Shown here piece after piece: positions 40,384 through 57,497 of a stretch of DNA of 64,000 nt. Both the position numbers and the translations under genes were made by a program. The first letter of the stretch is position 1, and each line of letters begins with the position of its first letter. The notes beneath the pieces are model-generated. The model did no database searches. It was not told the origin of the DNA and saw only the letters and a list, made by a program, of their open reading frames with translations. The DNA is from Rhodobacteraceae bacterium Alg231-04 (GTDB lineage Bacteria > Pseudomonadota > Alphaproteobacteria > Rhodobacterales > Rhodobacteraceae), in contig FREY01000003.1 in the NCBI GenBank assembly GCA_900143635.1, positions 449,220 through 513,219 on the forward strand, given 5' to 3'.

Positions 40384-40425
40384 CCCCTCCCCGCCAAGTC
40401 CCGAAGGCATGATGGCGGAAAGGGG
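40384..40425 (-). other. Intercistronic stem-loop after binding-protein gene
   Basis: CCCC (40384-40387) and CCGCCA (40391-40396) pair with TGGCGG (40413-40418) and GGGG (40422-40425). It lies between the binding-protein stop and the permease start. Structures like this commonly protect the upstream mRNA so that binding protein is made in excess over permease. Confidence 0.55.
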
Positions 40426-40437
40426 CTGAGTGGTGGC

Positions 40438-41694: not shown

Positions 41695-41721
41695 GGTTTC
41701 CTCCCTTATTTTCGTCTTGCA

Positions 41722-41740
41722 AGTTCCATTATTTGGAACT
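41722..41740. promoter_or_regulatory. IclR-type operator between galactoside operon and iclR gene
   Basis: A perfect 7-bp inverted repeat AGTTCCA (41722-41728) and TGGAACT (41734-41740) with a 5-nt spacer TTATT. It is 28 bp upstream of the binding-protein start and about 90 bp upstream of the divergent IclR gene. TTCCA-N5-TGGAA resembles known IclR-type sites. Confidence 0.65.
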
Positions 41741-41829
41741 AAGTTTTACATATTGAAATCTAACATCGACGCCACTAGGGTTGTCAACAGATTCTTGGCG
41801 CAGGTCAGGAATGGGGAGGAACTGCAGAG

Positions 41830-42597: not shown

Positions 42598-42619
42598 GTA
42601 ATACGTAAGGAGCCCTTTG

Positions 42620-43681
42620 ATGTCCGGAGTAACACTGAACAAGGCCGTGAAGTTCTACGGCGATGTGCAGGCCATCCACGGTGTGGATCTGCAAATCGAC
42701 GATGGCGAGTTCTGCGTCTTTGTCGGCCCTTCGGGCTGTGGCAAATCCACATTGCTGCGGATGATCGCAGGGCTGGAAGAAACCAGCGGCGGCCAGATCA
42801 ACATCGGCGCGCGCGATGTGACCAGCGCCGATCCCGCCAAACGCGGCGTGGCGATGGTGTTCCAGACCTATGCGCTTTACCCGCATATGACTGTGGGTGA
42901 AAACATGGGGTTTGGGCTGAAAATGAACGGCACCCCCAAGGCCGAGGTTGACGCCAAAGTCTCTGAGGCCTCGCGCATTCTGCAGCTGGACGACTACCTG
43001 AAACGCAAACCCAAGGCTCTGTCTGGTGGTCAGCGCCAGCGCGTTGCCATTGGCCGCGCTATTGTGCGCGGGCCCGAGGTGTTCCTGTTCGACGAACCGC
43101 TGTCCAATCTGGATGCAGAATTGCGCGTCGACATGCGGGTGGAAATCGCCCGTCTGCACAAGGAAATCGGTGCCACGATGATCTATGTCACCCATGATCA
43201 GGTCGAGGCGATGACGCTGGCCGACAAGATCGTGGTGCTGCGTGCAGGACGCATCGAGCAGGTCGGCAGCCCGATGGAGCTCTATAAGAACCCGGACAAT
43301 AAATTCGTGGCAGGCTTCATCGGCTCTCCGGCAATGAACTTCCTTCAAGGCAAGGTTCATGCCGGCAAGGTGGTGGTCCCCTCACTCGGCAATCGCACGA
43401 TTGAAACCACAGTGGCCCTGCCAGGCGAAGGCGCGCCGGTTTTGGTTGGCCTGCGCCCACAACACTTCCTGGTGGAAGAAGGCGACAGCGATATCATCCT
43501 TGATATCCGCGAGCGTCTGGGCGGCGTGGCTTATGACTACCTGCGCACCGGCAGCGGTGAAAAGATCATCGTGGAAACCCGCGGCGACGAGGCAATGCCC
43601 GAGGGCAGCACTGTCACGCTGAATTTCGACGATGCGGATGTGTTGTTCTTCGACGGTCAGACCGAACAGCGCCTGCGTTGA
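42620..43681 (+). CDS. ABC importer ATP-binding protein (UgpC/MsmK type)
   Basis: This 353-residue ATPase has Walker A GPSGCGKST (36-44), LSGGQRQR, Walker B FLFDEPLSNLDAELR and the H-loop YVTHDQVEAMTLADK. A C-terminal OB-fold domain (TOBE; about 240-353) is present as in MalK/UgpC/MsmK. It energises the permeases encoded at 38563-40345. ATG 42620 has AAGGAG 7 nt upstream; an in-frame TTG at 42617 would add one residue. It is co-transcribed with iclR and divergent from the rest of the importer genes. Confidence 0.94.
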   Translation: MSGVTLNKAVKFYGDVQAIHGVDLQIDDGEFCVFVGPSGCGKSTLLRMIAGLEETSGGQINIGARDVTSADPAKRGVAMVFQTYALYPHMTVGENMGFGLKMNGTPKAEVDAKVSEASRILQLDDYLKRKPKALSGGQRQRVAIGRAIVRGPEVFLFDEPLSNLDAELRVDMRVEIARLHKEIGATMIYVTHDQVEAMTLADKIVVLRAGRIEQVGSPMELYKNPDNKFVAGFIGSPAMNFLQGKVHAGKVVVPSLGNRTIETTVALPGEGAPVLVGLRPQHFLVEEGDSDIILDIRERLGGVAYDYLRTGSGEKIIVETRGDEAMPEGSTVTLNFDDADVLFFDGQTEQRLR

Positions 43682-43806: not shown

Positions 43807-44724
43807 TCAGGTGAGCCGGTCGAGCACCCCTTCTGCGATCATTTCGCCGACACGGACGTCGCTGTCTTTTGTCACCCCGGCGATATGCGGTGTAAGGATC
43901 AAGTTTTTCAGACCTTTAAACACCTGTGACGCCTCCTTGGTCAGGGGTTCGACCTCAAACACATCCAGCGCCGCACCTGAGATGGTGCCGGCACGCAACG
44001 CATCCGCCAATGCCGCGTCATCCACCACACCGCCACGCGCGGCGTTGATCAGAACCGCTTCCGGCTTCATGGTTTTCAGCGTCTCGGCATTGATTACATG
44101 CCGGGTCTCCGCCACCAGCGGCACATGCAGGCTGACCACATCGGACGATGCCAACACGGCTGCCTGATCCATCTGTTCCACCCCGACCCAAGCCGGGCTA
44201 TCCACCGGCACAAAGGGATCGGCGGCACAAACGGTCATGCCCATGGCGCGGGCCATTCGCGCGGTTTCCTGTGCGATACCGCCAAATCCAATGAGACCCA
44301 GCTTTCGCCCTGCTGCCTCACGCCCCGAACAGGCGGCACGCGGCCAGTTGCCCGCCATCATCGCATGTTTGGCCTGATAGGCATCGCGCAGCAGAACCAG
44401 CGCGTTGGTCACCACATATTCCGCCACCGAAAGGGTGTTTGCACCTATGGCCGGGATCACCGTCACATCTCGCGCCTTGCAGGCCACAAGGTCGATATTG
44501 TCCAGACCAACCCCCAGCCGCCCGACCACCTTCAGATCAGGCGCCGAGGCCAGCAGGTCGGACGTAACTTGCGTCCGGTTTCGCACGATCAGCGCCTCAA
44601 TACCGTTCATCAGCCCCGGAATATCCGCCTGATGATCCGCAAGCACGGGATCATAGGTTGTCGGATGCGCCGCCTTAAGCCGCGCAACCGCATCTTCATC
44701 CATGAATTCAGTGATCAGGATCAT
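43807..44724 (-). CDS. D-2-hydroxyacid dehydrogenase (SerA-like)
   Basis: This 305-residue NAD-dependent dehydrogenase has the Rossmann motif LGLIGFGGIAQETARMARAMG. The catalytic trio is Arg in NAARGGVVDD, Glu in VFEVEPL and His in TPHIAGVT. It lacks the C-terminal ACT domain of true phosphoglycerate dehydrogenases. It is the last gene of an eight-gene operon and overlaps the aldehyde dehydrogenase by 4 bp. The order suggests it oxidises the hydroxyacid made by that enzyme. If the pathway is sulfoglycolytic, this is sulfolactate to sulfopyruvate; for a deoxysugar it is lactate-like. Confidence 0.9.
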   Translation of the reverse strand: MILITEFMDEDAVARLKAAHPTTYDPVLADHQADIPGLMNGIEALIVRNRTQVTSDLLASAPDLKVVGRLGVGLDNIDLVACKARDVTVIPAIGANTLSVAEYVVTNALVLLRDAYQAKHAMMAGNWPRAACSGREAAGRKLGLIGFGGIAQETARMARAMGMTVCAADPFVPVDSPAWVGVEQMDQAAVLASSDVVSLHVPLVAETRHVINAETLKTMKPEAVLINAARGGVVDDAALADALRAGTISGAALDVFEVEPLTKEASQVFKGLKNLILTPHIAGVTKDSDVRVGEMIAEGVLDRLT

Positions 44725-46175
44725 TGATCCAAACCCGCCAGGCAGGTGTATTTTGAGACCAGATAATCATCCAGCCCCTGCGTGCCGCCCTCCTTGCCCA
44801 TGCCACTTTCCTTCACGCCACCAAAGGGGGCCTCGACCGTGGTGATCAGCCCGGCATTGATACCAATCAGCCCGTATTCCAGCCGCTCATTCAGGCGGAA
44901 GATACGGCCCAGATCGCGGGTATAGGCATAGGCCGCGAGCCCAAACTCGGTGTCGTTGGCCGCCTCCATGGCCTCGTCTTCGGTGTCGAACTTGAAGACC
45001 GCCGACAGCGGGCCAAAAATCTCATCTCTGGCGAACTGCATATCCTGAGTGGCCCCGGTGACGACGGTGGGCTGGAAATATGTGCCGCCCAGCTCGTGCC
45101 TTGCCCCGCCGGTGGCGATCTTGCCGCCTTTGGCGGTGGCGTCCGTGATCATCTCTTCCACCTTGGCGATCGCGCCTGCGTCGATCATGGGGCCCTGCAT
45201 GACGCCCTCGCCTGTCCCATCGCCCACTTTCAGGGCCTCGGTGGCAGCGGTCAGCTTGGCCACGAATGCATCGTGCACCCCCGCCTGCACGTAGAAACGG
45301 TTGGTACAGACACAGGTCTGGCCCATATTGCGGTATTTGGCGATCATCGCGCCCTCGATGGCGGCATCGATGTCGGCATCATCAAAGACAATGAAGGGCG
45401 CATTGCCGCCCAGCTCCATTGAGACCTTCTTCACCGTATCCGCCGACTGGCGGATCAGTGTCTTGCCCACTTCGGTGGAGCCGGTGAAGGTCACCTTGCG
45501 CACATCCGGGCTGTCCATGATCGCGCCACCAATGGCGCGGGCCGAGCCGGTGACGATGTTCACCACACCGGCCGGGAAACCCACCTCTTCACAAAGTTTG
45601 CCCCAGGCCAGCGCAGAGTATGGCGTGACGGTTGCCGGTTTGGCGACCACCGTGCAGCCTGCCGCCAGTGCCGGGCCCAGTTTGCGCGCCAGCATCGAAG
45701 AGGGGAAGTTCCACGGCGTGATGGCACCAACAACACCCACAGGGTGATGTGTCACCAGTAGACGGCGGCCCGCTTGCGGTGCCGGGACGATCTCGCCTTT
45801 CTTGCGGCGGATTTCCTCGGCGAACCAGCGGATATAGGCGGCCCCGATGGCGATCTCGCCGCGGGCCTCAAACAGCGGCTTGCCCTGTTCGGCTGTGAGC
45901 AGCTGAGCCAGCGCCTCCTGATTGTCCATCAGCGCATCATGCAGCTTTTGAAGCAGACCGACACGCAGCATCAGATCCGAGCGCGACCAGCCCGCAAAGG
46001 CCGCTTTGGCAGCGGCAATCGCCGCTTCGGTCTCGCCCGCGCCGCAGTTGGGCACAGTGCCCAGAACCGCCCCGGTTGCCGGGTTGGTGACATCAATCGT
46101 GCCGCCGTCCGCCGCGCCGGTCCATGCGCCTCCGATCAGGTTGGCCTGCAGTAGATATCCGTTGAAGCTGGTCAT
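44721..46175 (-). CDS. Aldehyde dehydrogenase, GabD-like (possible sulfolactaldehyde dehydrogenase)
   Basis: This 484-residue ALDH resembles succinate-semialdehyde dehydrogenases. Catalytic Asn156 (TPWNFPSS), Glu254 (MELGGNAP) and Cys288 (NMGQTCVC) are visible. No GABA genes are near. It follows the mutarotase by 3 nt and overlaps the hydroxyacid dehydrogenase by 4 bp, downstream of an aldolase that should release a three-carbon aldehyde. GabD-like enzymes oxidise sulfolactaldehyde in known sulfoglycolysis routes, so that is one candidate; lactaldehyde is another. The annotation as plain succinate-semialdehyde dehydrogenase would ignore the operon. Confidence 0.9.
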   Translation of the reverse strand: MTSFNGYLLQANLIGGAWTGAADGGTIDVTNPATGAVLGTVPNCGAGETEAAIAAAKAAFAGWSRSDLMLRVGLLQKLHDALMDNQEALAQLLTAEQGKPLFEARGEIAIGAAYIRWFAEEIRRKKGEIVPAPQAGRRLLVTHHPVGVVGAITPWNFPSSMLARKLGPALAAGCTVVAKPATVTPYSALAWGKLCEEVGFPAGVVNIVTGSARAIGGAIMDSPDVRKVTFTGSTEVGKTLIRQSADTVKKVSMELGGNAPFIVFDDADIDAAIEGAMIAKYRNMGQTCVCTNRFYVQAGVHDAFVAKLTAATEALKVGDGTGEGVMQGPMIDAGAIAKVEEMITDATAKGGKIATGGARHELGGTYFQPTVVTGATQDMQFARDEIFGPLSAVFKFDTEDEAMEAANDTEFGLAAYAYTRDLGRIFRLNERLEYGLIGINAGLITTVEAPFGGVKESGMGKEGGTQGLDDYLVSKYTCLAGLDQ

Positions 46176-46178
46176 TGC

Positions 46179-47174
46179 TCAGTCCTTTGAAATCTTGAAT
46201 TGGCTATGTTGTCTGTAGGTTTCGCCGGGCCGCAAAACGGCCTGTGGGAAATCCGGATTATTTGGCGCGTCGGGCCAGACCTGCGGTTCGATTGCAATTC
46301 CAGCGTGAGCGCTCATTTTTTGCCCATCCAATCCGGGCACCGGTATGTCCAGTTTGGCCCCATCATAGACCTGAAGTCCGGGTTCCGTTGTCCGCAGCTC
46401 AAGACCGACACCTGACGCCGCGCTGCGCAGCAAAGCCACCGGGCGGATCAACCCACGCTGGCGTGACAGGCAGAAGCTATGGTCAAACAGCGATCCCACC
46501 TGCGAAACAGGCGCCGGAGTGCGAAAATCAAACCCGGTCCCCGCAACCGCTGCCACCTCACCGGTCGGGATCAGTTCTTCATCGACCGGCAGGTAATGAT
46601 CGGCATCGACCTGCAGCAGATGGTCTGCCGCCGATCCGCTGCCGTCCAGACACCAGTAGCTGTGATGCGCCATATTGCAGAGCGTCGGCGCATCCGTTGT
46701 GGCCTCCATCTGCACATCGAACACGCCGCCGGGCAGCAGCGCATAGGTCACCCGGGCCTTCAGCCGACCGGGATAGCCCATATGGCCATCCTCCAGCACA
46801 ATGGAAAAGGCCGCCCAATCCATCGCGTGATCCTCCAGCGTCCAGAGCTGCTTGCCCATGCTGACCGCGCCGCCGTGCAGGGCGTGTTTGCCGAGGAAAT
46901 TCCGGTCCAGCTGATAGGTCTGCCCATCCAGCTCCAGATGGCCGTCGCGGATGCGATTGGCGCAACGCCCGGCCGTGGCCCCAAAATAGCGCGAATGTTT
47001 CAGGTATGACGGGAAATCTGCAAAGCCCAGCACCAGAGGTGCTGCGTGCCCCTCCAGCCGCAGGTCCTGCAGCACCGTGCCATAGGTCAGCACATGGGCC
47101 GTCAGCCCGCCGCCGATCAAGCGGATGCGCTGCACAGGGGGGCCGTCCGGCATCTGGCCGAAGTCCTCAATCAT
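46179..47174 (-). CDS. Aldose 1-epimerase (mutarotase), copy 2
   Basis: This 331-residue GalM-type protein has GRCANRIRDGHLELDGQ, the catalytic His in CNMAHHSYWCLDG and catalytic Glu in GIAIEPQVWPDAPN. It is clearly divergent from copy 1 at 26112 (different flanks to each catalytic residue), so a different sugar is likely. Position within the isomerase-kinase-aldolase operon suggests a dedicated mutarotase for that pathway's free sugar. It overlaps the Gfo/Idh/MocA gene by 4 bp. Confidence 0.92.
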   Translation of the reverse strand: MIEDFGQMPDGPPVQRIRLIGGGLTAHVLTYGTVLQDLRLEGHAAPLVLGFADFPSYLKHSRYFGATAGRCANRIRDGHLELDGQTYQLDRNFLGKHALHGGAVSMGKQLWTLEDHAMDWAAFSIVLEDGHMGYPGRLKARVTYALLPGGVFDVQMEATTDAPTLCNMAHHSYWCLDGSGSAADHLLQVDADHYLPVDEELIPTGEVAAVAGTGFDFRTPAPVSQVGSLFDHSFCLSRQRGLIRPVALLRSAASGVGLELRTTEPGLQVYDGAKLDIPVPGLDGQKMSAHAGIAIEPQVWPDAPNNPDFPQAVLRPGETYRQHSQFKISKD

Positions 47175-48268
47175 AGGCTGACCTCCACCGCTTGGCCTGT
47201 GCGTGCGCTCTGCTCGGCCGCCTCACCCACAATGACGGACCACAGCCCGTCTCTGAGCGAGACCTCGGGGGCGCCTTTGCCGGATGTCACCAGATCGCGA
47301 AAGCGCATGTGCTGATAGAAGGTCGACCCGTGGTGATCCCCTGCCGACAGGATCGCCTCATCCACCTCGATCTCTTCGCGGATCACCTCCTTGGAGGCAC
47401 GGTGCGAGATTTCGATCTCAGAGGCGCGTTCGCGGCCATCGGTAGTGAAGCGCGCAGGTCCCGGCACCCTGGCCTCCACGCGGGCCCTTTCACCGGTGAC
47501 TGAAATGACCTCCTGCCAATAGGAGCCTTCGGCAAACATGCACAAATCCAGCATGCCGCGCGCGCCATTGGCGAAATCAACGGTAACATAGGCATTGTCG
47601 AGGATATCCGGCGTGCGGCCCTCATAGGCCTCGTCCAAATGGTTCACATCAACGCCAGCCGAGGCATAGACCCGTACCGGATCACTGTGCAGGGCGAGCC
47701 GCATCAAATCCCAGAAATGACAGCATTTTTCCGTAAGTGTGCCGCCGGTGCGGGCGCTGAAGCGGTTCCAGTCACCGACCTTTTCGAGGAAAGGAAAGCG
47801 GTGCTCGCGGATCGACATCATACGCGGCGTACCGACAGTTTCGGCCTGCAGCTCGGACAGCAGACGCTGCACGGGCGGCATGTAACGGTACTCCATCGCC
47901 ACCCAGACCGGCGCGGCGCGACCCTCGGCCTTGGCCAGCACCTCGCGGCAATGGGCCGTGGTGGTGCAAAGCGGCTTTTCACACAGGATCGGCAGGTTGG
48001 TATCCAGCACATCCATCAGGATGCCATAATGGGTGTCGTTTGGTGCACCGATCAGCAGCGCGTCGCAGACATTGGCCGCCAGCATGTCCTTATAATCGGC
48101 AAACGCCGCCGCCCCGCCTGCGGTCACTGCCGACTGGTTGCGCATGCCCTCGTCCGGGTCGGCCACGGCGGTGACTTCGCAGCCCTCCAGCAGGTTAAGG
48201 TTGCGAATGTGTTCCTGTCCCATCATGCCCGATCCGATCAGGCCATAGCGCAGTGTCATGATCTTCAA
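47171..48268 (-). CDS. Gfo/Idh/MocA-family NAD-dependent protein (oxidoreductase or NAD-dependent glycosidase)
   Basis: The 365-residue protein has an N-terminal Rossmann fold (LRYGLIGSGMMGQEHIRNL), the CEKPL motif shared by the family, and a C-terminal alpha/beta substrate domain with GGTLTEKCCHFWDLM. Relatives oxidise inositols or sugars with NAD, and some (GH109, GH188) use NAD catalytically to cleave glycosides. In GH188 the known substrate is sulfoquinovosides. A glycosidase is otherwise missing from this operon, which makes that reading attractive but unproven. ATG 48268 gives a 4-bp overlap with the isomerase gene; ATG 48259 is an alternative. Confidence 0.85.
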   Translation of the reverse strand: MKIMTLRYGLIGSGMMGQEHIRNLNLLEGCEVTAVADPDEGMRNQSAVTAGGAAAFADYKDMLAANVCDALLIGAPNDTHYGILMDVLDTNLPILCEKPLCTTTAHCREVLAKAEGRAAPVWVAMEYRYMPPVQRLLSELQAETVGTPRMMSIREHRFPFLEKVGDWNRFSARTGGTLTEKCCHFWDLMRLALHSDPVRVYASAGVDVNHLDEAYEGRTPDILDNAYVTVDFANGARGMLDLCMFAEGSYWQEVISVTGERARVEARVPGPARFTTDGRERASEIEISHRASKEVIREEIEVDEAILSAGDHHGSTFYQHMRFRDLVTSGKGAPEVSLRDGLWSVIVGEAAEQSARTGQAVEVSL

Positions 48269-49647
48269 AGCTCCAATAGGGGGAGGCCCATGGCCCCGGC
48301 GGTGCCGCGCAGGGCGGCACGGTGATCGCCGTAGGCCAGCGCCATATGGTGTTCGAGGCCGCAGGCGATGATATCCTCCAGCACCACATCGGCCCCGCGA
48401 TCAAAGCGCAGAACACCGGAGGTGCCGGTAAAGGCCATGGGGCGTTCCAGCATTTCCGCCTTGGCCAGCACCATATGCGGGCGGCCATCAGCCTGGCTGA
48501 TCCGCATCAGGGTAACCGTGCCGGGCTTTAGCGGGAACTGGAACAACAGCGGCTGTTTTCGGTTGGTGTGAACCGTCGCCTCGGCCGCGACTTTGGGGTC
48601 GCGCATCGACAATGGCGCCTGCCCGCAGTGCCAGACCACGCCCGAATTGTCGCTCGCGTCCATATCCACCAGATCGGTGAGGAACACCGGCGCATCCGCG
48701 GCCTCCATCAGCACCAGCTGGGTCAGGGCGCCGTAAACATCTGCCTCGCAAGCGCAGGGCACTTTGGCCTCTCCCAGCATACCCGCAGGGCCGCAGATCG
48801 CGCCGCCGTATTCGGTGAAGGTTTCCGGCCAGCAGCGGATAGCAAAAGCGTCATAGCCCCCGGATCCGCGCAGAGTGTCCAGCCCGGCCTTCAGCCGCAG
48901 AGAGCGGTCCAGTTGTGGCTGGTCTAACTCTTGCAGCCCCGACACGTCCTTATCCGCTGCGGCGCGCAACGCTGAGGCGGTCTCATCGGACACCTTACGG
49001 GCCTGATCAAACAGATCCTCCAGCTCCAAAGCATCCACTTTGACGCCCGCCAATGCATCCACGGCATCCGCATCATAGGCGCAAGTGTCGAACCCTTCGG
49101 GGTGATCACCGATACGGGCGATGCGGCGGCCACTGACGGCCTTGGCGATGCGGTTTCCGGCGTCTGTGGCTGCAGGAATGCCCTCTGGGCCCAGCTGGCC
49201 GGCCTGCCGCTGGCCATCCAGCAAGGCCGCAAGACCCCCGTCGATTTCGGCCTCGGGATCGGCATAGAGCCAGCCAAAGTCGCGCCCGTTGCGGCGCAGG
49301 GCGTGGCTGGCAAGATTGAGACCGCAAAAGGCATTGAGCCGCAAACGCCCACCGCTGCGCGGCTCCGGCACGGCCCAGATCGACAACGGTGTGTCAAAGG
49401 CATTGGCCGCCGCCACCGTCATTGAGGCATCCGTGAAGGTGACTTGCAGCAGCAAGACTTGATCAATGCCCGCGCCTTTGAGGGCGGCAATGCCTGCCTT
49501 GGTGGCCTCCGCATCAAACAGCAGCTCGCGCGGGCCGCAGACCTCGTGCCCGGTTGCCGCCAGTGCAGTCAGCATCGCTGCCAGCTTTTCCTCGGCATAG
49601 CCCACGTCGAATGTGGGTCGGCCAAGGGGGAGAATTCCCAGTTTCAT
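48265..49647 (-). CDS. L-fucose/L-arabinose isomerase-like protein
   Basis: This 460-residue cytoplasmic protein matches the layout of the fucose/arabinose isomerase superfamily. It has a Rossmann-like N-terminal part (KLGILPLGRPTFDVGYAEEK; DQVLLLQVTFTDASM), a central part with Glu/Asp metal-site candidates (CWPETFTEYGGAICGPAGML), and a C-terminal barrel with HTNRKQPLLFQFPLKPGTVTL. It would isomerise an aldose to a ketose with a divalent metal. It sits directly before the aldolase's 3' end (5-nt gap) and after the kinase in operon logic. The sugar is not determinable by eye. SQ isomerases of some sulfoglycolysis pathways come from this superfamily. Confidence 0.75.
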   Translation of the reverse strand: MKLGILPLGRPTFDVGYAEEKLAAMLTALAATGHEVCGPRELLFDAEATKAGIAALKGAGIDQVLLLQVTFTDASMTVAAANAFDTPLSIWAVPEPRSGGRLRLNAFCGLNLASHALRRNGRDFGWLYADPEAEIDGGLAALLDGQRQAGQLGPEGIPAATDAGNRIAKAVSGRRIARIGDHPEGFDTCAYDADAVDALAGVKVDALELEDLFDQARKVSDETASALRAAADKDVSGLQELDQPQLDRSLRLKAGLDTLRGSGGYDAFAIRCWPETFTEYGGAICGPAGMLGEAKVPCACEADVYGALTQLVLMEAADAPVFLTDLVDMDASDNSGVVWHCGQAPLSMRDPKVAAEATVHTNRKQPLLFQFPLKPGTVTLMRISQADGRPHMVLAKAEMLERPMAFTGTSGVLRFDRGADVVLEDIIACGLEHHMALAYGDHRAALRGTAGAMGLPLLEL

Positions 49648-49652
49648 TTCTA

Positions 49653-50684
49653 TCAGACTCCGAAATCGGCATAGTCATGGCGAAAGCTTGCATCACCCGG
49701 TGTAAAACGCGCGCCGCCTTCACCGTAGCAGGAGTGTTTGGTCCAATCCGCCGCCTTGGCATCTGCAAGATCAGAGATGTCGCGCATGTAGTCCGCCGCG
49801 CCGCCCTCCAGCCCAGCCCGGATCGCATCCCAGTCTGGATAGGCGTTGAAGGCATCCAGCCAGATTGCGCGACCCGCCAGAAAACCCGAGGCCCCGGCGG
49901 CAAAGGCATGCTCCAGCACTTTGCGGAATTCCGGCTTGCCGGCCCCGGCGCTCAGCATCACCCAAGGACGCCCCGCGAGACGGCCCATTTCGTCAAACAC
50001 CGCCTGCACCGCGGCAGAGCCATCGGCATCCGCCGCATTCACCGGGCTTTCCAGCTTGAAGACATCAACGCCATATTCGGGCTTGGCGAATTCTTCGACC
50101 GAGGCAAGCACATCATCGGCCTTCTTGCCCTGCATCTCGACATAGTCCTTGGTCTGATGGGCATCAGCCGCCAGCGGATAGACCAGCAGCTCGAACAGGA
50201 AGGGAATGTCATAGCGGGCGCATTCCTCGCCGATGCGTTTGACGTAATCCTGCTGGGCCTTGTTGACCTCATCGCCCGCATCGGGCCGGTACCAGGCTAG
50301 GACCTTTACCGCGTCGCCGCCCATGCGTTTGATTTTGGCCACGGTCCAGTCGTCAATGTCCGACGAAAGACGCCCTGCGGCGGTTTCCTCAAACAGACTG
50401 TCTTCCAGCGTGACGATCAGGCCCTTTTGCGGTGACAGAACATCCAGACTGTGTGGAATGGCGTAATGCGGATCCAGCAGCATGGCGGTGCTCTGGTCCT
50501 GCAGCGTTTCCACCAGCAGGCCCTTGAAGCGGGCGACCTGATCCCACGGGGCCTGTTCGGAGCCCATATGGGCGGCAATCGGGCCCTTGATTGGCGGACG
50601 CTGATCCACCGCTGTCATCTTGAACACGCCATTTGCGTCCGCCATGCGACGCAGGCCCCACAGTTTACCAGGGGTGAGAGTCAT
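49653..50684 (-). CDS. Class I aldolase of LacD/YihT family (tagatose-1,6-bisphosphate aldolase-like)
   Basis: This 343-residue TIM-barrel aldolase has FKMTAVDQRP near the start, LLDPHYAIP, the helix DYVKRIGEECARYDIPFLFELLVY, and Schiff-base Lys210 in VDVFKLESPVN. It ends with LSAGAGKPEFRKVLEHAFAAGASGFLAGRAIW. The LacD family splits tagatose-1,6-bisphosphate; the related YihT splits 6-deoxy-6-sulfofructose-1-phosphate to DHAP and sulfolactaldehyde. ATG 50684 gives a 4-bp overlap with the kinase stop and has AAGGAG upstream. Substrate depends on the identity of the kinase. Confidence 0.88.
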   Translation of the reverse strand: MTLTPGKLWGLRRMADANGVFKMTAVDQRPPIKGPIAAHMGSEQAPWDQVARFKGLLVETLQDQSTAMLLDPHYAIPHSLDVLSPQKGLIVTLEDSLFEETAAGRLSSDIDDWTVAKIKRMGGDAVKVLAWYRPDAGDEVNKAQQDYVKRIGEECARYDIPFLFELLVYPLAADAHQTKDYVEMQGKKADDVLASVEEFAKPEYGVDVFKLESPVNAADADGSAAVQAVFDEMGRLAGRPWVMLSAGAGKPEFRKVLEHAFAAGASGFLAGRAIWLDAFNAYPDWDAIRAGLEGGAADYMRDISDLADAKAADWTKHSCYGEGGARFTPGDASFRHDYADFGV

Positions 50685-51568
50685 GCTTCCTGCTCCTTGA
50701 GGAAAGTTTCCGTATCGGTGCGGGAGGGCGCGCCCTCCCGGCCACCGGGTTTCAAACATTTGAGAGCGGCTGCCGCGCAGGCAAACCGGATGGCCGTCGC
50801 CTCGTCCTGCCCCTCGGCAAGCGCGAGGGTGAAGGCACCATGCCAGACATCGCCCGCGCCGAGCGTGTCGACAGGGGTAACCGGGAAGGCCGGACAGTGT
50901 TCGATGCCGTCAAACCCGGTGAACCAGACGCCGTTTTCGCCATCGGTCACGCAGGCCCAGCAGCCGTGTTCGGCCGAGATTTTCAATAATGCCTCTTCCG
51001 GGCCAAGGTCCGGCGCCAGATCGCGCAGACCTTGCATCGAGAACGCCGCATGGCTGGCCAATGAGACAAGGCCGGGATCAACCGGCGCCTCGCCGTCCAG
51101 CACGCCGGGAATGCCGCGGGTGCGGGCCATCGTCAGCGCATCCTCGGCAGCTGCAACGCGGCGCGTATCAGTCAGGACAGCCGCCACATTTTGCAGGCCC
51201 GCGAACCAGCCGGTGTCCAAATGCAGCCCAGCACCGCGAAAGTTCACGATCTGGCGTTCGCCGCGCTGGTCAAGATAGACCGAGGAATAGGAGCTGCGCG
51301 CGCGCGGCGTGCGGGTCACATTGGCGCAATCGACACCTTCAGCCTCGACACCTGCCACCACCATATCGCCGATGGCGTCATCGCCCAGCCGTGCCCCCAG
51401 AACCGCCTGACCACCCAATCGCGACACAGCCACCGCCGCATTGGCGGCACATCCACCGCCCACGATGGCCGCGTTCTCGGTACCGTATTTCTCGGCCCGG
51501 TCGGGCAGGTCAGGCAGCTGGAAAACAAAGTCGACAACCGCCGCGCCGACGCACAGAACCTTGGTCAT
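50681..51568 (-). CDS. PfkB-family sugar kinase, sulfofructose-kinase (YihV)-like
   Basis: This 295-residue ribokinase-type enzyme has the N-terminal glycine motif IVGGGCAANAAVAVSRLG and the C-terminal signature DTLGAGDVWHGAF (234-246, catalytic Asp240). Compared from memory with E. coli YihV, several blocks coincide: EKYGTENAAIVGGG, ARSSYSSVYLDQRGERQIVNF, VLDGE, and AALKCLKPGGREGAPS at the end. That C-terminal KPGGR block is less usual in general fructokinases. It probably phosphorylates the ketose made by the isomerase. It overlaps the di-heme peroxidase gene by 4 bp and the aldolase gene by 4 bp. Confidence 0.85.
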   Translation of the reverse strand: MTKVLCVGAAVVDFVFQLPDLPDRAEKYGTENAAIVGGGCAANAAVAVSRLGGQAVLGARLGDDAIGDMVVAGVEAEGVDCANVTRTPRARSSYSSVYLDQRGERQIVNFRGAGLHLDTGWFAGLQNVAAVLTDTRRVAAAEDALTMARTRGIPGVLDGEAPVDPGLVSLASHAAFSMQGLRDLAPDLGPEEALLKISAEHGCWACVTDGENGVWFTGFDGIEHCPAFPVTPVDTLGAGDVWHGAFTLALAEGQDEATAIRFACAAAALKCLKPGGREGAPSRTDTETFLKEQEA

Positions 51569-52890
51569 TCAGGAACCTCCAGCCCGCTGGGCACGGTTTC
51601 GGGACGCCCCAGACGACCCCTAAGGCTGTCAGTGCCGGTCAGCGCGTTTAAGAATGAAATGACCTGTGCAATCTCGGCATCGGTCAGGCTCACCGGCTCC
51701 AGATCAAGTCGCGAGGCCAGACGCGCACGCTCGCGACCGTCCTGCATGGGCAGAAAATCGGCCGAGGCGAGCCAGGGCACGTCCGGCAAGGCGGCCAGTT
51801 GTGGCTGCCAGTTGCGATATTCACTGCGTGCATCTAGGTGATGGCGCAGAATGCCGTCGAGCGTGGCATAGGCCCCGTTGTGGCCGTAAGGCGCGGTCAG
51901 TGCCACATTGCGAAGCGACGGTGTCCGGAAACGATAGGCATCCTCCAACCGGTCCGAAGCCCCCATGCGCCCCACATCGCGCACAACCGGATCCCACTGG
52001 CGGGTCTTGCCGGGGCCGAAATGCGGCAGCATCAGTGCGTGAAATTTCTGGTCGGTCAGAAGGGGCCCGGAGTGACAGTCGGCACAGCCGGCCTCACCAT
52101 AAAACAAATCCATTCCCGCTTTCTGGTCCGGTGTCAGCGCCGCTGCATCCCCCGCAAGAAAGGCGTCAAAGGGGCTGTCAAAGCTCTGAAACTCCGTGCC
52201 CTCAAAGGCCGCAAGCGCATTGGCGACATGGGTGATGGTGATGTCCAGCGGGCTGGTCACATCGTCAAAGGCGCCAACGAACATCTCGGCGTATTCCGGG
52301 ATGATCCGCACCCGTTTGGCGATGATCGGCCAGACCGCGTCGATCCGGTCATAGGCAGCCCCAGCTACCTGATTTTCTTTCGGATCGCCCGCCATTTCAA
52401 ACTGCGAGGTCATCGGAAACAGTGCCTGCGCGGCAAGGATAGAGTTCAGCCCCTCAGGCAGCCATTCCTGCGCCGGGCTGTCAAAACCGTTGTCGTAGAT
52501 GTCCGAAACAGACAGCCGCCCATCGTGGAACATCACATCCACCTCACGCGCGCCTAGGTTCCACAGGGCCGGTGCGTTGCGCGGGATGCGCTTAATGATA
52601 CGCGCGGCCCCTGCGCCCGGCCTGCGGTCGGGGCCAAGCCCGGTACCGCCCTCACCGATCCCCAGCGACAGGGCATCACCAGTGCCGTGCTCCGGATGGT
52701 GGCAGGTGGCACAGGCGATGTTGCGATTGCCGGACAGGATCGGATCAAAAAACAAGAGCTGCCCTATCCGCGCCTGATCCGCATCGAACCGGATGAAATC
52801 AGAGGGTTGCAAGGGCGCCGGAAGCGGGTTCCCATACGCGGGCGCGCAAGCGAACACCCCCAAGGCCGCGCCAAGAAAACTGTTACGAAT
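51565..52890 (-). CDS. Di-heme cytochrome c peroxidase / MauG-family protein (copy 2)
   Basis: This protein of ~441 residues has two heme c motifs, CATCH (60-64) and CADCH (269-273), and the same blocks as copy 1 (RIGQLLFFDPILSGNRNIACATCHHP, FRTPSLRNVALTAPYGHNGAYATLDGIL, and a matching C-terminus). The start is uncertain: the signal peptide (RNSFLGAALGVFACAPAYG) begins right after ATT at 52890, while the only ordinary start codons (TTG 52863, GTG 52857) would shorten it. No ribosome site is clear. It is first in the eight-gene operon and overlaps the kinase by 4 bp. Confidence 0.87.
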   Translation of the reverse strand: MRNSFLGAALGVFACAPAYGNPLPAPLQPSDFIRFDADQARIGQLLFFDPILSGNRNIACATCHHPEHGTGDALSLGIGEGGTGLGPDRRPGAGAARIIKRIPRNAPALWNLGAREVDVMFHDGRLSVSDIYDNGFDSPAQEWLPEGLNSILAAQALFPMTSQFEMAGDPKENQVAGAAYDRIDAVWPIIAKRVRIIPEYAEMFVGAFDDVTSPLDITITHVANALAAFEGTEFQSFDSPFDAFLAGDAAALTPDQKAGMDLFYGEAGCADCHSGPLLTDQKFHALMLPHFGPGKTRQWDPVVRDVGRMGASDRLEDAYRFRTPSLRNVALTAPYGHNGAYATLDGILRHHLDARSEYRNWQPQLAALPDVPWLASADFLPMQDGRERARLASRLDLEPVSLTDAEIAQVISFLNALTGTDSLRGRLGRPETVPSGLEVPE

Positions 52891-52899
52891 GGAGAGGTT

Positions 52900-53382
52900 A
52901 TGAGAAGAATTGCCACCGCCCCGATATTGGCCCTGATGCTGACTGCCACGCCTGCGCTGGCCGAGATTGAAACCGGCCGCGACCTGATGGATGCCAAGGA
53001 TTACGCTGGCGCCATGCAGGAGTTTCTGCCCGCCGCGCGCAGCGGCAATGCCGAGGCGGAGGAGCTGATCGGGGTGATGTATGCGTTGGGGCTGGGGGTT
53101 GAGCGGGACGATGTGCGCGCCTTTGAATGGTATCTGCGCGCCTCGATGAAGGGCCACGCCGGGGCACAGTCGGGCATTGGCTGGTATTATGAGGTCGGTC
53201 GCGGCATGCCCGCACCGGACCTGGTCAGGGCCTACATGTGGTACACGCTCTCCGCCATCGGAGGGGACCCCGATGCAGCCATATCGCTTGAAGATGTGGT
53301 GAAGAAGATGACGCGCGAACAAATCGAAAAAGCCCATGTGCTGGTGGACGACTACCGGGTCTGGCTTTACCCGTTCCGGTAA
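52900..53382 (+). CDS. Exported Sel1-like repeat protein
   Basis: The 160-residue protein has a signal peptide (MRRIATAPILALMLTATPALA) and two or three Sel1-like TPR repeats, for example GNAEAEELIGVMYALGLGVERDDVRAFEWYLRAS, GHAGAQSGIGWYYEVGRGMP and YMWYTLSAIGGD. Such proteins act as protein-binding scaffolds in the periplasm. GGAGAGG lies 6 nt before ATG 52900. Its 5' end faces that of the di-heme peroxidase gene with only ~10 bp between them, so each promoter must lie within the other gene or further away. Confidence 0.85.
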   Translation: MRRIATAPILALMLTATPALAEIETGRDLMDAKDYAGAMQEFLPAARSGNAEAEELIGVMYALGLGVERDDVRAFEWYLRASMKGHAGAQSGIGWYYEVGRGMPAPDLVRAYMWYTLSAIGGDPDAAISLEDVVKKMTREQIEKAHVLVDDYRVWLYPFR

Positions 53383-54524: not shown

Positions 54525-56021
54525 TTATTGAACAAACCCGGTCAGACGCGGGATTGTCATGCAGATAGCCGGTACGTAGGTGATGAGAAAGATCACCGCC
54601 ACTTCAACCAAGAGAAACGGCAGGATTGCGCGGGAAATAGCCTCGACCTTTTCACCGGACACGGAACTGGCCACAAACAGCACCAGCCCCATGGGTGGCG
54701 TTGCCAGCCCCACGGTCAGATTGACGCTCATGATGATGGCGAAATGGACCGGGTGAACGCCGAGATCGACAAAGATCGGACCCAGGATCGGGCCCAGAAT
54801 GATGATCGCGGGCCCCGCGTCCAAGAACATGCCGACGACAAACAGCAGGATGTTGATCAGGAACAGCAGAATCAGCGGATTTTCCGACAGGCCAAGGATA
54901 AAGGCGGCCATGGTTTCCGGCGCGTGGCTCAGGCTGACCACGGTTTTGAAGGCCACCGCCGCACCAACAAGCAGCAGAACGGTTGAAGAGCTGAGCGCAG
55001 CGCGAGTCAGGGCCGCGGGCAGATCGCTCAGCTTCATTGATCGCAGGATGAAGAACGACACGATCAACGCATAAGCCACGGCCACAGCACTGGCTTCGGT
55101 TGGGGTAAAGACACCAACGAGAATACCGCCCAGGATGATGATCGGCGTCTGCAAGGGCGCCACGGCCTTTTTGCAGATGATGCGGAAATCCGGGCTGACC
55201 TTGGTGCGCAGGCGCAACAGCAGAAGATGAGCGACCGGCAAAAAGACCAGGAAGACCAGCCAGCCGTTCACACCAATCTCGGTGCCCGTCATCCGCAGCA
55301 ACGCGGCCACAGCAGCGAACAACCCTGCCAGAACACCGGCGAGGTTCAAACGCAGCAGGAAAAAACTCACCCGTTCTTCCAGCGGCGTGATGGTCTGGTT
55401 CTGATGCACGATGCGTTCAGCCTTGGGCAGGTCGTATTTGTCCGCCATCAGGCGCACCACCAGCATCAGCCCGACGCCCACCAGAATGCCCGGCACGATC
55501 CCCGCAAGGAACAGCGCCGCGACGCTTTCTCCCATCACATAGGCATAGATGATCATGATGCCTGAGGGTGGAATAATCGGCCCGATCACCGAGCTTGCAG
55601 CCGTCACGGCGGCGGCAAAGGTACGGGTATAGCCATTTTTCTCCATCGCCGGGATCAGGGTGGAGCCAAGCGCCGAAGTATCTGCCACCGCCGACCCGGA
55701 AAGCCCGGCAAACAGGATCGAGCTAAGGATATTCACATGCGCCAGCCCGCCACGGAAATGGCCCATCAGCGCCTGGCTGAATTCGACCAGCCGCATGGTG
55801 ATACCACCGCGGTTCATCAGCTCGCCCGCCAGCACAAAGAACGGCAACGCCATCAAGGGGAAACTGTCCATGCCGTTGTAAACATTGCGGTAAAGTAGCG
55901 CGATGTCTCGCTCCTGACCATTCAGCGACAGCAGCAAGCCCGGAGCCAGCAACAGGGCAAAGACCACCGGCAGGCCGATCATCAGGAAGACAAGGAAGAC
56001 GGGCAGAAACAGTGCCAGCAT
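54525..56021 (-). CDS. dctM: TRAP transporter large permease (DctM)
   Basis: This 498-residue inner-membrane protein has about twelve to fourteen helices. It carries the DctM markers LPFFVLAGELMNRGGITMRLVEFS, LFAGLSGSAVADTSALGSTLIPAM and IIPPSGIMIIYAYV, and near the end SVNLTVGLATPPMGLVLFV. An insertion with charged residues (about 195-290) makes it longer than the usual ~430. It uses the Na+ gradient to import the substrate bound by DctP. It overlaps the dctQ stop by one base. Confidence 0.92.
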   Translation of the reverse strand: MLALFLPVFLVFLMIGLPVVFALLLAPGLLLSLNGQERDIALLYRNVYNGMDSFPLMALPFFVLAGELMNRGGITMRLVEFSQALMGHFRGGLAHVNILSSILFAGLSGSAVADTSALGSTLIPAMEKNGYTRTFAAAVTAASSVIGPIIPPSGIMIIYAYVMGESVAALFLAGIVPGILVGVGLMLVVRLMADKYDLPKAERIVHQNQTITPLEERVSFFLLRLNLAGVLAGLFAAVAALLRMTGTEIGVNGWLVFLVFLPVAHLLLLRLRTKVSPDFRIICKKAVAPLQTPIIILGGILVGVFTPTEASAVAVAYALIVSFFILRSMKLSDLPAALTRAALSSSTVLLLVGAAVAFKTVVSLSHAPETMAAFILGLSENPLILLFLINILLFVVGMFLDAGPAIIILGPILGPIFVDLGVHPVHFAIIMSVNLTVGLATPPMGLVLFVASSVSGEKVEAISRAILPFLLVEVAVIFLITYVPAICMTIPRLTGFVQ

Positions 56022-56602
56022 CAGTCGGCCTCCATCGCAAAGCCGCTGCCATCGTCATCCGGCAGTTCGCTATCAGGTGAAACAATCCGAAGTGCGGCGC
56101 GCAGGATCAGCTCGATATTCACTGAAATCAGCAGCAGCACGCAGACATAAAGCGAGGCATACATGTAGCGCAGTTTGACCTTCACCACCTCCAGCCCAAC
56201 CCAGTCCAGCGGCAGTTTGAGCGAAGAACTGGAGAAATTCCCGCCAAAGCCCAGAGTGTGTTTGTGCCCATGCGGCAATGCCATCAGAAGAACGGCCAGC
56301 GACATCCCCAACAGGAGCAGCCCAAGCACGGCGCCCGCCCGGCGCGGCAATGCGCCTTCCAGCATATCGATGGAGACAAACCCGCCCCAGCGGTAGGCGG
56401 AGGGGGCCATCAGCCCGGTCATCCACAGCATCAGGAACCGCGCCGCTTCATCCGGCCAGGGCAGCGCGTTGTTCAGGACGTAGCGGCAGAAAACCTGCGT
56501 CAGGATCACCAGAACCATCAGCGCCAGCGCCATCCAACCAAGGAAACGGCCCGCGCGCAGGATCTGCGTATTCACCCAAACCAGAGAATTAAAAATAACC
56601 AT
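56021..56602 (-). CDS. dctQ: TRAP transporter small permease (DctQ)
   Basis: This 193-residue protein has four membrane helices in the DctQ pattern (LGWMALALMVLVILTQVFCRYVLN, then LPWPDEAARFLMLWMTGLMAPSAYR). It partners DctM. It is first in the three-gene TRAP operon; 1 bp overlaps dctM. A DeoR-type operator lies 61 bp upstream of its start. There is a 30-residue charged tail ending FAMEAD. Confidence 0.9.
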   Translation of the reverse strand: MVIFNSLVWVNTQILRAGRFLGWMALALMVLVILTQVFCRYVLNNALPWPDEAARFLMLWMTGLMAPSAYRWGGFVSIDMLEGALPRRAGAVLGLLLLGMSLAVLLMALPHGHKHTLGFGGNFSSSSLKLPLDWVGLEVVKVKLRYMYASLYVCVLLLISVNIELILRAALRIVSPDSELPDDDGSGFAMEAD

Positions 56603-56726: not shown

Positions 56727-57497
56727 TTAAGCCTCCACCAAGCCAACACCATGCGACTGGCACAGCGCCTTCAACGCCGCAGGGCAGCGCTGGTCGGTAA
56801 CCATTGTATGCACCTGCGACAGATGCCCGATACAGACAGGAGCCATTCCGTCAAATTTTGAACTGTCGACCGCCAGAATGACATGGCGCGCATTTTCAAT
56901 GATTGCCCGCGCGACCGAGGCTTCCCGCAGATCATAATCCAGCAACGCCCCATCCTGAGCCACTGCAGCCGCGCCTATAACAGCGATGTCAGCCCGGAAC
57001 TGGCGGATGAAATCCACCGCCGCCTCGCCCAGTATGGCACCATCCGACGGGCGTACAATTCCGCCCGGCACCATTACCTCCACGCCGGGGAACCGTCTGA
57101 TATCATTGGCAACGGACACGGAATCCGTGACAATTTTCAAACCCGCATGATTGATGAAATTGCGCGCGGCCGCCGCGGTCGTGGTGCCAGAATTGATAAT
57201 GACGGCCGTATGACTGGGCACCAGCCCCGCTACTGCCTTTCCGATCGCTTCCTTTTCATCACGCGCAATGGCCTGACGCACTTCGAACTGCGTATACTCG
57301 GTCCCGGCCAGCAAAGAGGCCCCGCCATGAAACCGCATGACCCGGCCGTCTTCGGACAAAAAGTTCAAGTCTTTGCGGATAGTCTGTGGCGTGGTCGCAA
57401 AAATCTCGGCCAGCTCATCAACGGTGGCCCGGCCACTCTGCTTGAGGTGACTGAGGATGGCCGCATGGCGGAGTTTTGTGTTTTTCGACGCTTTCAT
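56727..57497 (-). CDS. DeoR/GlpR-family transcriptional repressor
   Basis: This 256-residue protein has the DeoR winged helix (HAAILSHLKQSGRATVDELAEIFATTPQTIRKDLNFLSEDGRVMRFHGGASL) and a DeoRC sugar-phosphate sensor domain with IINSGTTTAAAARNF, VTDSVSVAND and AVDSSKFDGMAPV. The effector is expected to be a phosphorylated sugar. It lies between the TRAP operon and a LacI gene, all on the minus strand. The shared TTTCG-repeat motif upstream of both this gene and dctQ suggests it controls itself and the TRAP carrier. Confidence 0.93.
   Translation of the reverse strand: MKASKNTKLRHAAILSHLKQSGRATVDELAEIFATTPQTIRKDLNFLSEDGRVMRFHGGASLLAGTEYTQFEVRQAIARDEKEAIGKAVAGLVPSHTAVIINSGTTTAAAARNFINHAGLKIVTDSVSVANDIRRFPGVEVMVPGGIVRPSDGAILGEAAVDFIRQFRADIAVIGAAAVAQDGALLDYDLREASVARAIIENARHVILAVDSSKFDGMAPVCIGHLSQVHTMVTDQRCPAALKALCQSHGVGLVEA

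What the first reader, a model, noticed from the sequence alone, without database searches (positions are those of the whole stretch)
43807..52890. Eight-gene overlapping operon that looks like a sulfoglycolysis variant
Seen: di-heme peroxidase, PfkB kinase, LacD/YihT-type aldolase, fucose-isomerase-like protein, Gfo/Idh/MocA protein, mutarotase, GabD-like aldehyde dehydrogenase and 2-hydroxyacid dehydrogenase, with 4-bp overlaps or gaps of 5 nt or less. The logic is isomerise, phosphorylate, split to DHAP plus a C3 aldehyde, oxidise twice. Known families: the kinase shares several blocks with E. coli sulfofructose kinase YihV (EKYGTENAAIVGGG, GERQIVNF, KPGGREGAP). In sulfo-EMP pathways a YihT-like class I aldolase yields sulfolactaldehyde, which GabD-like enzymes can oxidise. 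Inference: the sugar is sulfoquinovose and the products sulfolactate and sulfopyruvate. A 6-deoxy or galacto-type sugar is the main alternative. The combination with a fucose-type isomerase, a Gfo/Idh/MocA protein and a di-heme peroxidase is not one I recognise.
Basis: partly seen in the sequence, partly recalled or inferred. Interest (0 to 1): 0.85.

Follow-up and report, generated by a model that had tools for sequence, protein, structure and literature searches.

The report
Marine sulfosugar operon with heme enzyme
This stretch of a marine bacterium's genome most likely lets it take up and break down sulfoquinovose, the sugar of plant and algal sulfolipids, and it carries an unexplained heme enzyme that also accompanies a second, different sulfoquinovose pathway in related bacteria.

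Summary
The "Gfo/Idh/MocA protein" is a GH188 sulfoquinovosidase (E about 1e-118 to solved SqgA enzymes; sulfonate-loop residues conserved). The kinase forms a 100/99 clade with E. coli YihV. The "fucose isomerase" has SQ isomerase SftI as its only NCBIfam hit, well below cut-off. In relatives, sulfopyruvate decarboxylase (ComDE) directly follows the 2-hydroxyacid dehydrogenase, so the operon probably makes sulfolactate, then sulfopyruvate; the own genome holds ComDE and Xsc elsewhere. This is a hybrid sulfo-EMP pathway, a type already in print. Less expected: the di-heme MauG-like gene, a Sel1-repeat gene and a TRAP transporter form a module that recurs beside sulfo-SMO-type genes, a different SQ pathway. 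Of 126 genomes with a close MauG copy, 123 carry a marker gene of one of the two pathways; of 174 genomes with neither marker, 3 have the close copy. I found no paper on this module, but the search was limited. What the heme enzyme does is unknown, and no activity has been assayed.

The parts
56727..57497 (-). DeoR-family regulator
   Evidence: DeoRC and HTH_DeoR; present upstream of the TRAP genes in many related loci
56021..56602 (-). TRAP transporter DctQ
   Evidence: PF04290
54525..56021 (-). TRAP transporter DctM
   Evidence: PF06808
53428..54486 (-). TRAP solute-binding protein DctP; ligand SQ or SQ-glycerol is inferred
   Evidence: PF03480; in 21 of 23 close loci
52900..53382 (+). Sel1-repeat protein, divergent from MauG
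   Evidence: PF08238 Sel1; in 20 of 23 close loci
51565..52890 (-). di-heme MauG-like protein (start codon uncertain)
   Evidence: CCP_MauG; below NCBIfam MauG, MbnH and HxS-MauG cut-offs
50681..51568 (-). YihV-type sulfofructose kinase
   Evidence: 7ag6 sulfofructose kinase 1.8e-54; tree 100/99 with YihV
49653..50684 (-). class I LacD-type aldolase, proposed sulfofructose-1-phosphate aldolase
   Evidence: DeoC/LacD; 8tnf 4.9e-94, LacD about 1e-40, YihT about 1e-16
48265..49647 (-). SqvD/SftI-like sulfoquinovose isomerase (fucose/arabinose isomerase fold)
   Evidence: NF048012 258 bits, cut-off 700; model fold matches AraA and FucI
47171..48268 (-). SqgA, GH188 NAD-dependent sulfoquinovosidase (TTG start, or ATG at 48259)
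   Evidence: 8qc3/8qc2 about 1e-118; 8 of 9 named residues map
46179..47174 (-). aldose 1-epimerase, proposed SQ mutarotase
   Evidence: PF01263
44721..46175 (-). GabD-like aldehyde dehydrogenase, proposed sulfolactaldehyde dehydrogenase
   Evidence: PF00171; SSADH model 628.6 bits, just under its cut-off 646.35
43807..44724 (-). 2-hydroxyacid dehydrogenase, proposed SlcC-like sulfolactate dehydrogenase
   Evidence: PF02826/PF00389; ComDE follows its orthologue in 9 of 48 loci

Best explanation
A sulfoquinovose (SQ) catabolic locus of the hybrid sulfo-EMP type. A TRAP transporter brings in SQ or SQ-glycerol; SqgA frees SQ by an NAD-dependent redox mechanism; the mutarotase equilibrates it; an SqvD-like metal isomerase makes sulfofructose; a YihV-type kinase makes sulfofructose-1-phosphate; a LacD-like class I aldolase splits it into DHAP and sulfolactaldehyde; the GabD-like enzyme makes sulfolactate; the SlcC-like dehydrogenase makes sulfopyruvate. 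ComDE and Xsc, encoded elsewhere in this genome, would then release sulfite, so one cell can probably use all carbon of SQ. The MauG-like and Sel1-like proteins are an SQ-linked accessory pair shared with sulfo-SMO-type loci; their task is open. Shown by sequence: families, order, conserved residues, co-occurrence. Inferred: every reaction, every substrate, the transport role and full mineralisation.
For: SqgA: three solved relatives at 3e-120 to 2e-117, the next at 8e-17; two of the three are SqgA by PMC10755693; catalytic K98, Y127, E180, H184, H312 and sulfonate-loop R157, L161, K163 match. Kinase clade with YihV 100/99. Isomerase: only NCBIfam hit is SQ isomerase; AraA/FucI fold, Z 34.7 and 30.9 against 9.3 for the first unrelated row. 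ComDE directly after the dehydrogenase in 9 of 48 loci, by a 4-bp overlap in L109, both subunits over cut-off. SuyAB-like pair before the dehydrogenase in L145. Own genome: ComE and Xsc over cut-off, ComD 0.65 bits under.
Against: No assay. The isomerase is far under the SftI cut-off (258 against 700). The aldolase passes a tagatose-bisphosphate aldolase subfamily model (334 against 184) and is distant from YihT. The residues proposed for sulfonate binding in SLA dehydrogenase are shared with SSADH, so they do not decide; the window enzyme scores close to the SSADH cut-off. Own ComDE lies on contig C12 in a DHPS-type cluster, not in this operon, so joint expression is unknown. Five of 48 relatives keep aldolase, isomerase and SqgA but show no kinase of this type.
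Confidence: 0.84

Rival explanations
1. The sugar is another sulfosugar, for instance sulfofucose (the 4-epimer of SQ), broken down by the same EMP-like logic through sulfotagatose.
For: The aldolase is LacD/tagatose-type; PMC12421959 considered such a route for Paracoccus and found PF00294 and PF01791 genes in its sulfofucose cluster.
Against: In that strain the kinase, aldolase and isomerase candidates were not induced and an ED-like route was shown. Here GH188 active-site residues, including the Glu that binds O4 of SQ, are kept, and close MauG/Sel1/TRAP modules sit beside SQ-monooxygenase-type genes.
Confidence: 0.09
2. A non-sulfonated sugar pathway (tagatose, 6-deoxy or galacto-type sugar).
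For: NCBIfam names the aldolase a tagatose 1,6-diphosphate aldolase subfamily; mutarotase and isomerase families are general.
Against: SqgA residues, YihV clade, ComDE and SuyAB-like genes beside the operon in relatives.
Confidence: 0.03
3. The MauG-like protein has nothing to do with SQ: it is a general periplasmic peroxidase that stays with the TRAP genes by linkage and common descent.
For: MauG relatives are common in the order (246 of 390 genomes at E up to 1e-60); the best solved relatives are cytochrome c peroxidases; related genomes inflate co-occurrence; 92 of 193 monooxygenase genomes lack a close copy.
Against: Close copies (57% or more) are almost confined to genomes with a marker of an SQ pathway (123 of 126; 3 of 174 genomes with neither have one); Sel1 stays beside MauG in 19 of 20 stretches, once without TRAP genes (L087).
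Confidence: 0.35
4. Sulfolactate or sulfopyruvate is an excreted end product and this organism does not mineralise it on SQ.
For: Arthrobacter with a sulfo-EMP pathway excretes sulfolactate (PMC8873060); this operon itself has no ComDE or SuyAB.
Against: A second dehydrogenase after the sulfolactaldehyde step makes little sense for mere excretion; relatives have ComDE in the operon; the own genome has ComDE and Xsc.
Confidence: 0.2

Closest known systems
GH188 Tyr-variant clusters of Actinobacteria (Backlund and Higgins 2024, PMC11465081)
   Same: SLA dehydrogenase, D-3-phosphoglycerate-type dehydrogenase, SFP aldolase, SF kinase, fucose isomerase and GH188 together
   Different: Here the sulfonate-loop residue is Leu, not Tyr; TRAP instead of ABC transport; MauG and Sel1 are present and are not mentioned there; no sulfolactate lyase in the window operon
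Sulfo-EMP of Arthrobacter AK01 with SqgA (PMC8873060, PMC10755693)
   Same: YihV-type kinase, GabD-like SLA dehydrogenase, GH188 SqgA
   Different: Arthrobacter has a YihS isomerase and a YihT aldolase and no mutarotase; here an SqvD-like isomerase, a LacD-like aldolase and a mutarotase
Hybrid sulfo-EMP/EMP2 clusters (PMC9594981, PMC10599462, PMC12890257; passages)
   Same: Mix of EMP and EMP2 enzymes; SqvD with YihR is mentioned as a variant; hybrids reported in Proteobacteria
   Different: Aldolase neither YihT nor the class II SqiA; added sulfolactate dehydrogenase and the MauG/Sel1/TRAP module
Roseobacter sulfo-SMO clusters with GH188 (PMC10755693, PMC13372026; text and passages)
   Same: GH188 nearby and the same TRAP-Sel1-MauG module in the stretches examined
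   Different: Catalysis by C-S cleavage with a monooxygenase instead of sulfoglycolysis
MauG, MbnH and bacterial cytochrome c peroxidases
   Same: CCP_MauG domain with two CxxCH motifs
   Different: Below the curated cut-offs of the MauG, MbnH and HxS-MauG models; an invariant His at 350 seems to stand where peroxidases have Met and MauG has Tyr (by eye; ligands recalled)

Membership tests
GH188 sulfoquinovosidase (SqgA) | Overall similarity to solved SqgA enzymes | tested here: met
   8qc3 1.1e-118 and 8qc2 1.7e-117, full length
GH188 sulfoquinovosidase (SqgA) | Named catalytic and sulfonate-binding residues | tested here: met
   8 of 9 map at one offset and are conserved; for Glu163 the Glu is one place off
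GH188 sulfoquinovosidase (SqgA) | NAD-dependent cleavage of SQ glycosides | not testable with these tools
   needs an assay
YihV sulfofructose kinase | Groups with YihV against other PfkB kinases | tested here: met
   18-row clade, 100/99, 32 rows; no tagatose kinase in the set
SqvD/SftI sulfoquinovose isomerase | NCBIfam NF048012 score over the curated cut-off | tested here: not met
   258 bits, cut-off 700; it is the only family hit. Works-like claim only
SqvD/SftI sulfoquinovose isomerase | L-fucose/arabinose isomerase fold with conserved metal ligands | tested here: inconclusive
   Fold matched (Z 34.7 AraA, 30.9 FucI over model residues 158-460); E301, D325, H434 are invariant but their role as ligands is by recall of FucI
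Sulfo-EMP2 pathway | SqiK kinase (PF00365) and class II SqiA aldolase (PF01116) | tested here: not met
   Kinase is PF00294, aldolase PF01791
Classical sulfo-EMP pathway | YihS-type isomerase and YihT aldolase | tested here: not met
   Isomerase is of the FucI/AraA fold; aldolase nearer LacD than YihT
SLA dehydrogenase (GabD/SlaB) | PF00171 with sulfonate-binding Arg pair and WNF motif as proposed in PMC10599462 | tested here: inconclusive
   PF00171; Arg pair and WNF are in the window sequence by eye, but SSADH shares them
SlcC sulfolactate dehydrogenase | Sequence similarity to a proven SlcC | not tested
   No reference sequence at hand; assigned from ComDE and SuyAB-like neighbours in relatives
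MauG (tryptophylquinone maturation) | TIGR03791 score over the cut-off | tested here: not met
   118.1 bits, cut-off 443.85
Sulfo-SMO clusters used for comparison | SQ monooxygenase with aldo-keto reductase and flavin reductase | tested here: inconclusive
   Luciferase-like (PF00296), AKR and flavin reductase families found; monooxygenase is below the alkanesulfonate monooxygenase cut-off (246 against 518.2) and was not aligned to a proven SmoC

The most novel reading that the evidence does not exclude
The Sel1-like and MauG-like pair, with the TRAP system, is a pathway-independent sulfoquinovose module: the di-heme enzyme oxidatively matures a periplasmic partner (the Sel1-repeat protein with its conserved aromatic C-terminus, or DctP), as MauG and MbnH do for theirs, and this makes capture or processing of SQ glycosides possible. 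Catalytic cassettes (sulfo-EMP or sulfo-SMO) have been exchanged around this constant front end.
Probability: 0.25. Interest if true: 0.78.

Novelty: new variant of a known kind. Interest (0 to 1): 0.56.

Why it matters
Sulfoquinovose is made on a scale of billions of tons a year (PMC10755693). If right, many marine Rhodobacterales and Hyphomicrobiales carry sulfoglycolysis together with sulfolactate mineralisation, so one cell could do what is usually described as the work of two. The MauG/Sel1 association points at an unknown step in SQ use that simple knock-outs can test, and it offers a search handle for SQ loci of either pathway.

Tried and rejected
Non-sulfonated sugar: thought unlikely on the SqgA residues, the kinase tree and the ComDE/SuyAB-like neighbours.

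SuyAB in the own genome: the two PF04295 hits lie in ORFs of 498 and 521 aa that also carry the N-terminal part, so I read them as UxaA-type, not SuyB (by layout, not by a family search).

Sequence search of solved structures for the isomerase gave nothing with one sequence or with a 22-row profile; the fold comparison did.

First kinase tree: four own-genome rows were wrongly extracted (branch lengths 5 to 10), so it is discarded; there the clade test gave p-AU 0.326. For one search the own rows were re-extracted and six cluster rows (L119, L158, L166, L172, L176, L182) were dropped to thin the set; L158 hits YihV better than the window kinase.

Identity of 8tnf, best match of the aldolase: searched in papers without result.

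The idea that MauG is specific to this operon was dropped: most close copies sit beside sulfo-SMO-type genes. The 57% line was chosen after I saw the list (a gap lies between 57 and 55%), the 15-kb limit was mine, and the Fisher value (4.8e-37) ignores relatedness. The DctP tree needs 6 label changes and is poorly resolved; the MauG tree (2 changes, short search, root on the long branch L106) places the sulfo-SMO rows inside the sulfo-EMP rows. In these trees 'SMO' labels the 20 stretches without the isomerase, of which L087 and L106 hold no monooxygenase. So 'exchange of cassettes' is suggestive only.

Not in print: rests on held-library searches only. One search listed 15 of 92 papers, none of those 15 with 'sulfoquinovose', so a paper that joins it with MauG or Sel1 is not excluded. 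Two wanted papers, the Roseobacter SQ paper (PMC9938184) and the ACS Cent Sci sulfosugar paper, are not held. Supplements were not open.
Full report
What is there. The eight ORFs are on the minus strand from 43807 to about 52890, with five 4-bp overlaps and gaps of 3 and 5 nt. Upstream, and kept with the operon in relatives, lie DctP, DctM, DctQ and a DeoR regulator; a Sel1-repeat gene on the plus strand sits between DctP and MauG, head to head with MauG.

Core enzymes. (a) The Gfo/Idh/MocA protein matches three solved proteins at 3e-120 to 2e-117 and the next at 8e-17. Two of the three (8QC2, 8QC3) are the GH188 sulfoquinovosidases FlSqgA and ArSqgA by the data statement of PMC10755693. Eight of nine residues that the paper names for catalysis and sulfonate binding map at one offset and are conserved; for the ninth (Glu163) a Glu stands one place off. 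(b) The kinase's best solved match is E. coli sulfofructose kinase (1.8e-54); a sugar kinase of unstated function, 2rbc, is close behind (5e-49). In a tree of 32 rows, 17 cluster kinases (window included) and YihV stand together at 100/99 against 14 others: E. coli RbsK, PsuK, FruK, PfkB, KdgK, YdjH and 8 PfkB paralogues of the own genome. (c) The isomerase hits one NCBIfam model, SQ isomerase SftI, at 258 bits, well under its cut-off of 700. Its AlphaFold2 model (mean pLDDT 91, 22 sequences) matches L-arabinose isomerase (Z 34.7, rmsd 2.3, 299 residues) and L-fucose isomerase 1fui (Z 30.9, rmsd 2.4, 295 residues), both over model residues from about 158 on; the first unrelated row has Z 9.3. 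PMC9594981 describes SqvD as a FucI homologue. (d) The aldolase is LacD-type: best 8tnf (4.9e-94, named a DUF2090 domain-containing protein), LacD entries about 1e-40, YihT about 1e-16; it passes the cut-off of an NCBIfam tagatose-bisphosphate aldolase subfamily. So it is neither a plain YihT nor SqiA. (e) The aldehyde dehydrogenase is GabD-like, 628.6 bits against an SSADH cut-off of 646.35; sulfolactaldehyde dehydrogenases belong to that superfamily (PMC10599462), so sequence alone does not decide between the two.

What the last two genes do. The isomerase scan of 84,980 species genomes gave 175 relatives; the best 80 were kept. In the 48 of those loci longer than 20 kb, hits of 60 bits or more show kinase, aldolase and SqgA each in 42, DctP in 39, Sel1 in 36, MauG in 35, the 2-hydroxyacid dehydrogenase in 32, mutarotase in 25 and aldehyde dehydrogenase in 22. 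In 9 of 48, ComD and ComE (sulfopyruvate decarboxylase) follow the dehydrogenase; in Shimia abyssi (L109) ComD overlaps it by 4 bp, and both subunits pass their cut-offs. In 7 of 48 a UxaA-like hit lies just before the dehydrogenase; in the one that I opened (L145, Hoeflea poritis) it is a 99-aa SAF protein plus a 388-aa GD_AH protein, the layout of SuyAB as I recall it. So the dehydrogenase most likely interconverts sulfolactate and sulfopyruvate, the role that PMC12421959 gives to SlcC. The own genome has ComE over cut-off and ComD 0.65 bits under, beside an L-lactate-dehydrogenase-like gene and a histidinol-dehydrogenase-family gene (HpsN-like by recall), in what looks like a DHPS cluster on contig C12. 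It has Xsc over cut-off on C18, with a Pta-like gene by eye, and two genes over the cut-off of the family that I recall to include cysteate lyase. A bifurcated sulfolactate route is known in Roseovarius nubinhibens (title in a reference list only). Full mineralisation of SQ in one cell is thus predicted, as PMC10599462 suggested for one Ensifer with sulfo-ED and PMC12421959 showed for sulfofucose.

How common. In 390 genomes of the window's order 32 have an isomerase match at E up to 1e-20: 24 (window included) at 58% or more, 8 at 27 to 33%. Of the 23 other close loci, MauG and Sel1 are each in 20, kinase and SqgA in 22, aldolase, mutarotase, aldehyde dehydrogenase and 2-hydroxyacid dehydrogenase (over 50%) in 19, DctP in 21 (counted, stretches of 19.9 kb). 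Against the pattern: L050 lacks MauG, Sel1, mutarotase and aldehyde dehydrogenase; L052 has only kinase and isomerase; L065 lacks kinase and aldolase; L064 and L066 lack the aldolase.

The MauG surprise. I expected MauG to be tied to this operon. It is not. Of 390 genomes 246 have a relative at E up to 1e-60, and 126 carry a close copy (57% or more). I chose 20 MauG hits outside the isomerase operon and fetched the DNA. Sel1 is beside MauG in 19 of 20, the TRAP genes in 18, a GH188 gene (47 to 53% to the window's, some cut by the end of the stretch) in 12. A luciferase-like monooxygenase ORF is in 18 (in one search it has relatives in 17 of the 19 other stretches). With it go an aldo-keto reductase and a flavin reductase. 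That is the make-up of the roseobacter sulfo-SMO cluster, in which GH188 is near-universal (PMC10755693); I did not align the monooxygenase with a proven SmoC. It is in 193 of the 390 genomes. Of the 126 close MauG copies, 21 lie within 15 kb of the isomerase and 78 within 15 kb of the monooxygenase; 17 are in genomes whose monooxygenase place was not listed; 6 have the monooxygenase and 1 the isomerase elsewhere; 3 have neither. The other way round, 123 of 216 genomes with either marker have the close MauG (23 of 24 with the isomerase, 101 of 193 with the monooxygenase), against 3 of 174 with neither (Fisher 4.8e-37, relatedness not corrected). One genome, G052, has both markers. In the MauG tree the 19 sulfo-SMO-side rows form one group (SH-aLRT 91) inside the sulfo-EMP rows (short search, long outgroup L106).

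What the MauG-like protein may do. It has two CxxCH motifs, an invariant W187, and a near-invariant His at 350 about where peroxidases carry Met and MauG Tyr (by eye; ligands recalled). It scores below the MauG, MbnH and HxS-MauG cut-offs; the best solved relative is a cytochrome c peroxidase at 1.5e-29, MauG at about 1e-17. Sel1 has many conserved aromatic residues and ends in a conserved DY....YP motif. Maturation of a partner, peroxide defence and hitchhiking all remain open.

Known or new. The enzyme set is a hybrid sulfo-EMP; hybrids in Proteobacteria are in print (passages of PMC10599462 and PMC12890257), and nearly the same set is described for Actinobacteria (PMC11465081). Kaur et al. 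list Rhodobacteraceae among the clusters that they drew (figure legend), which may include this one. In the held library, sulfoquinovose with cytochrome c peroxidase gave two papers, on a diatom and on Lotus, and with TRAP terms two papers on gut taurine bacteria; for MauG, di-heme or Sel1 only 15 of 92 listed papers were seen, none with sulfoquinovose. Subscription papers and supplements could not be checked.

Papers, what I saw: PMC10755693 parts 1 to 3 of 4; PMC12421959 parts 1 and 2 of 9 plus passages; PMC11465081 part 1 of 2; passages only of PMC9594981, PMC13372026, PMC12890257, PMC10599462, PMC8873060; the rest were search listings.

Noticed in passing
L115, L116, L118, L122, L124, L126 (Silicimonas and Boseongicola MAGs): Reduced cassettes with kinase, isomerase, aldehyde dehydrogenase and 2-hydroxyacid dehydrogenase but no aldolase or SqgA hit nearby; in L115 I saw no obvious replacement among the ORFs.
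   Followed up: partly
L146, L160, L167, L171, L173: Aldolase, isomerase and SqgA present but no kinase hit of 60 bits in a locus of more than 20 kb; another kinase type may take its place.
   Followed up: no
L084:613-10829 (own genome, contig C12): LacI regulator, TRAP genes, HpsN-like, SDR and MDR dehydrogenases, ComD, ComE and an L-lactate-dehydrogenase-like gene: looks like a DHPS degradation cluster.
   Followed up: partly
L077:9340-16423 (own genome, contig C18): Xsc, Pta-like gene, a membrane protein and a large molybdopterin oxidoreductase in a row, perhaps sulfite oxidation after Xsc.
   Followed up: partly
L085:5103-8015 and L086:5808-7748 (own genome): Two copies of an ACC-deaminase-related (cysteate-lyase-like) gene, each close to an aspartate-racemase-like gene.
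   Followed up: no
window 52861-52900: The MauG reading frame has no ATG near its conserved start and runs head to head with the Sel1 start; candidates are TTG, GTG or the ATT at 52890.
   Followed up: partly
window 58710-59762: A GAPDH gene (by eye) beyond the LacI gene next to the locus; DHAP from sulfoglycolysis would need gluconeogenesis.
   Followed up: no
window 39413-43681: ABC sugar transporter genes with an IclR regulator next to the operon; IclR and ABC homologues also flank the locus in a few relatives.
   Followed up: no
L177 / G052 (Kangsaoukella pontilimi): Kinase and isomerase alone, without the rest of the operon, in a genome that also has the sulfo-SMO-type locus with MauG.
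   Followed up: partly
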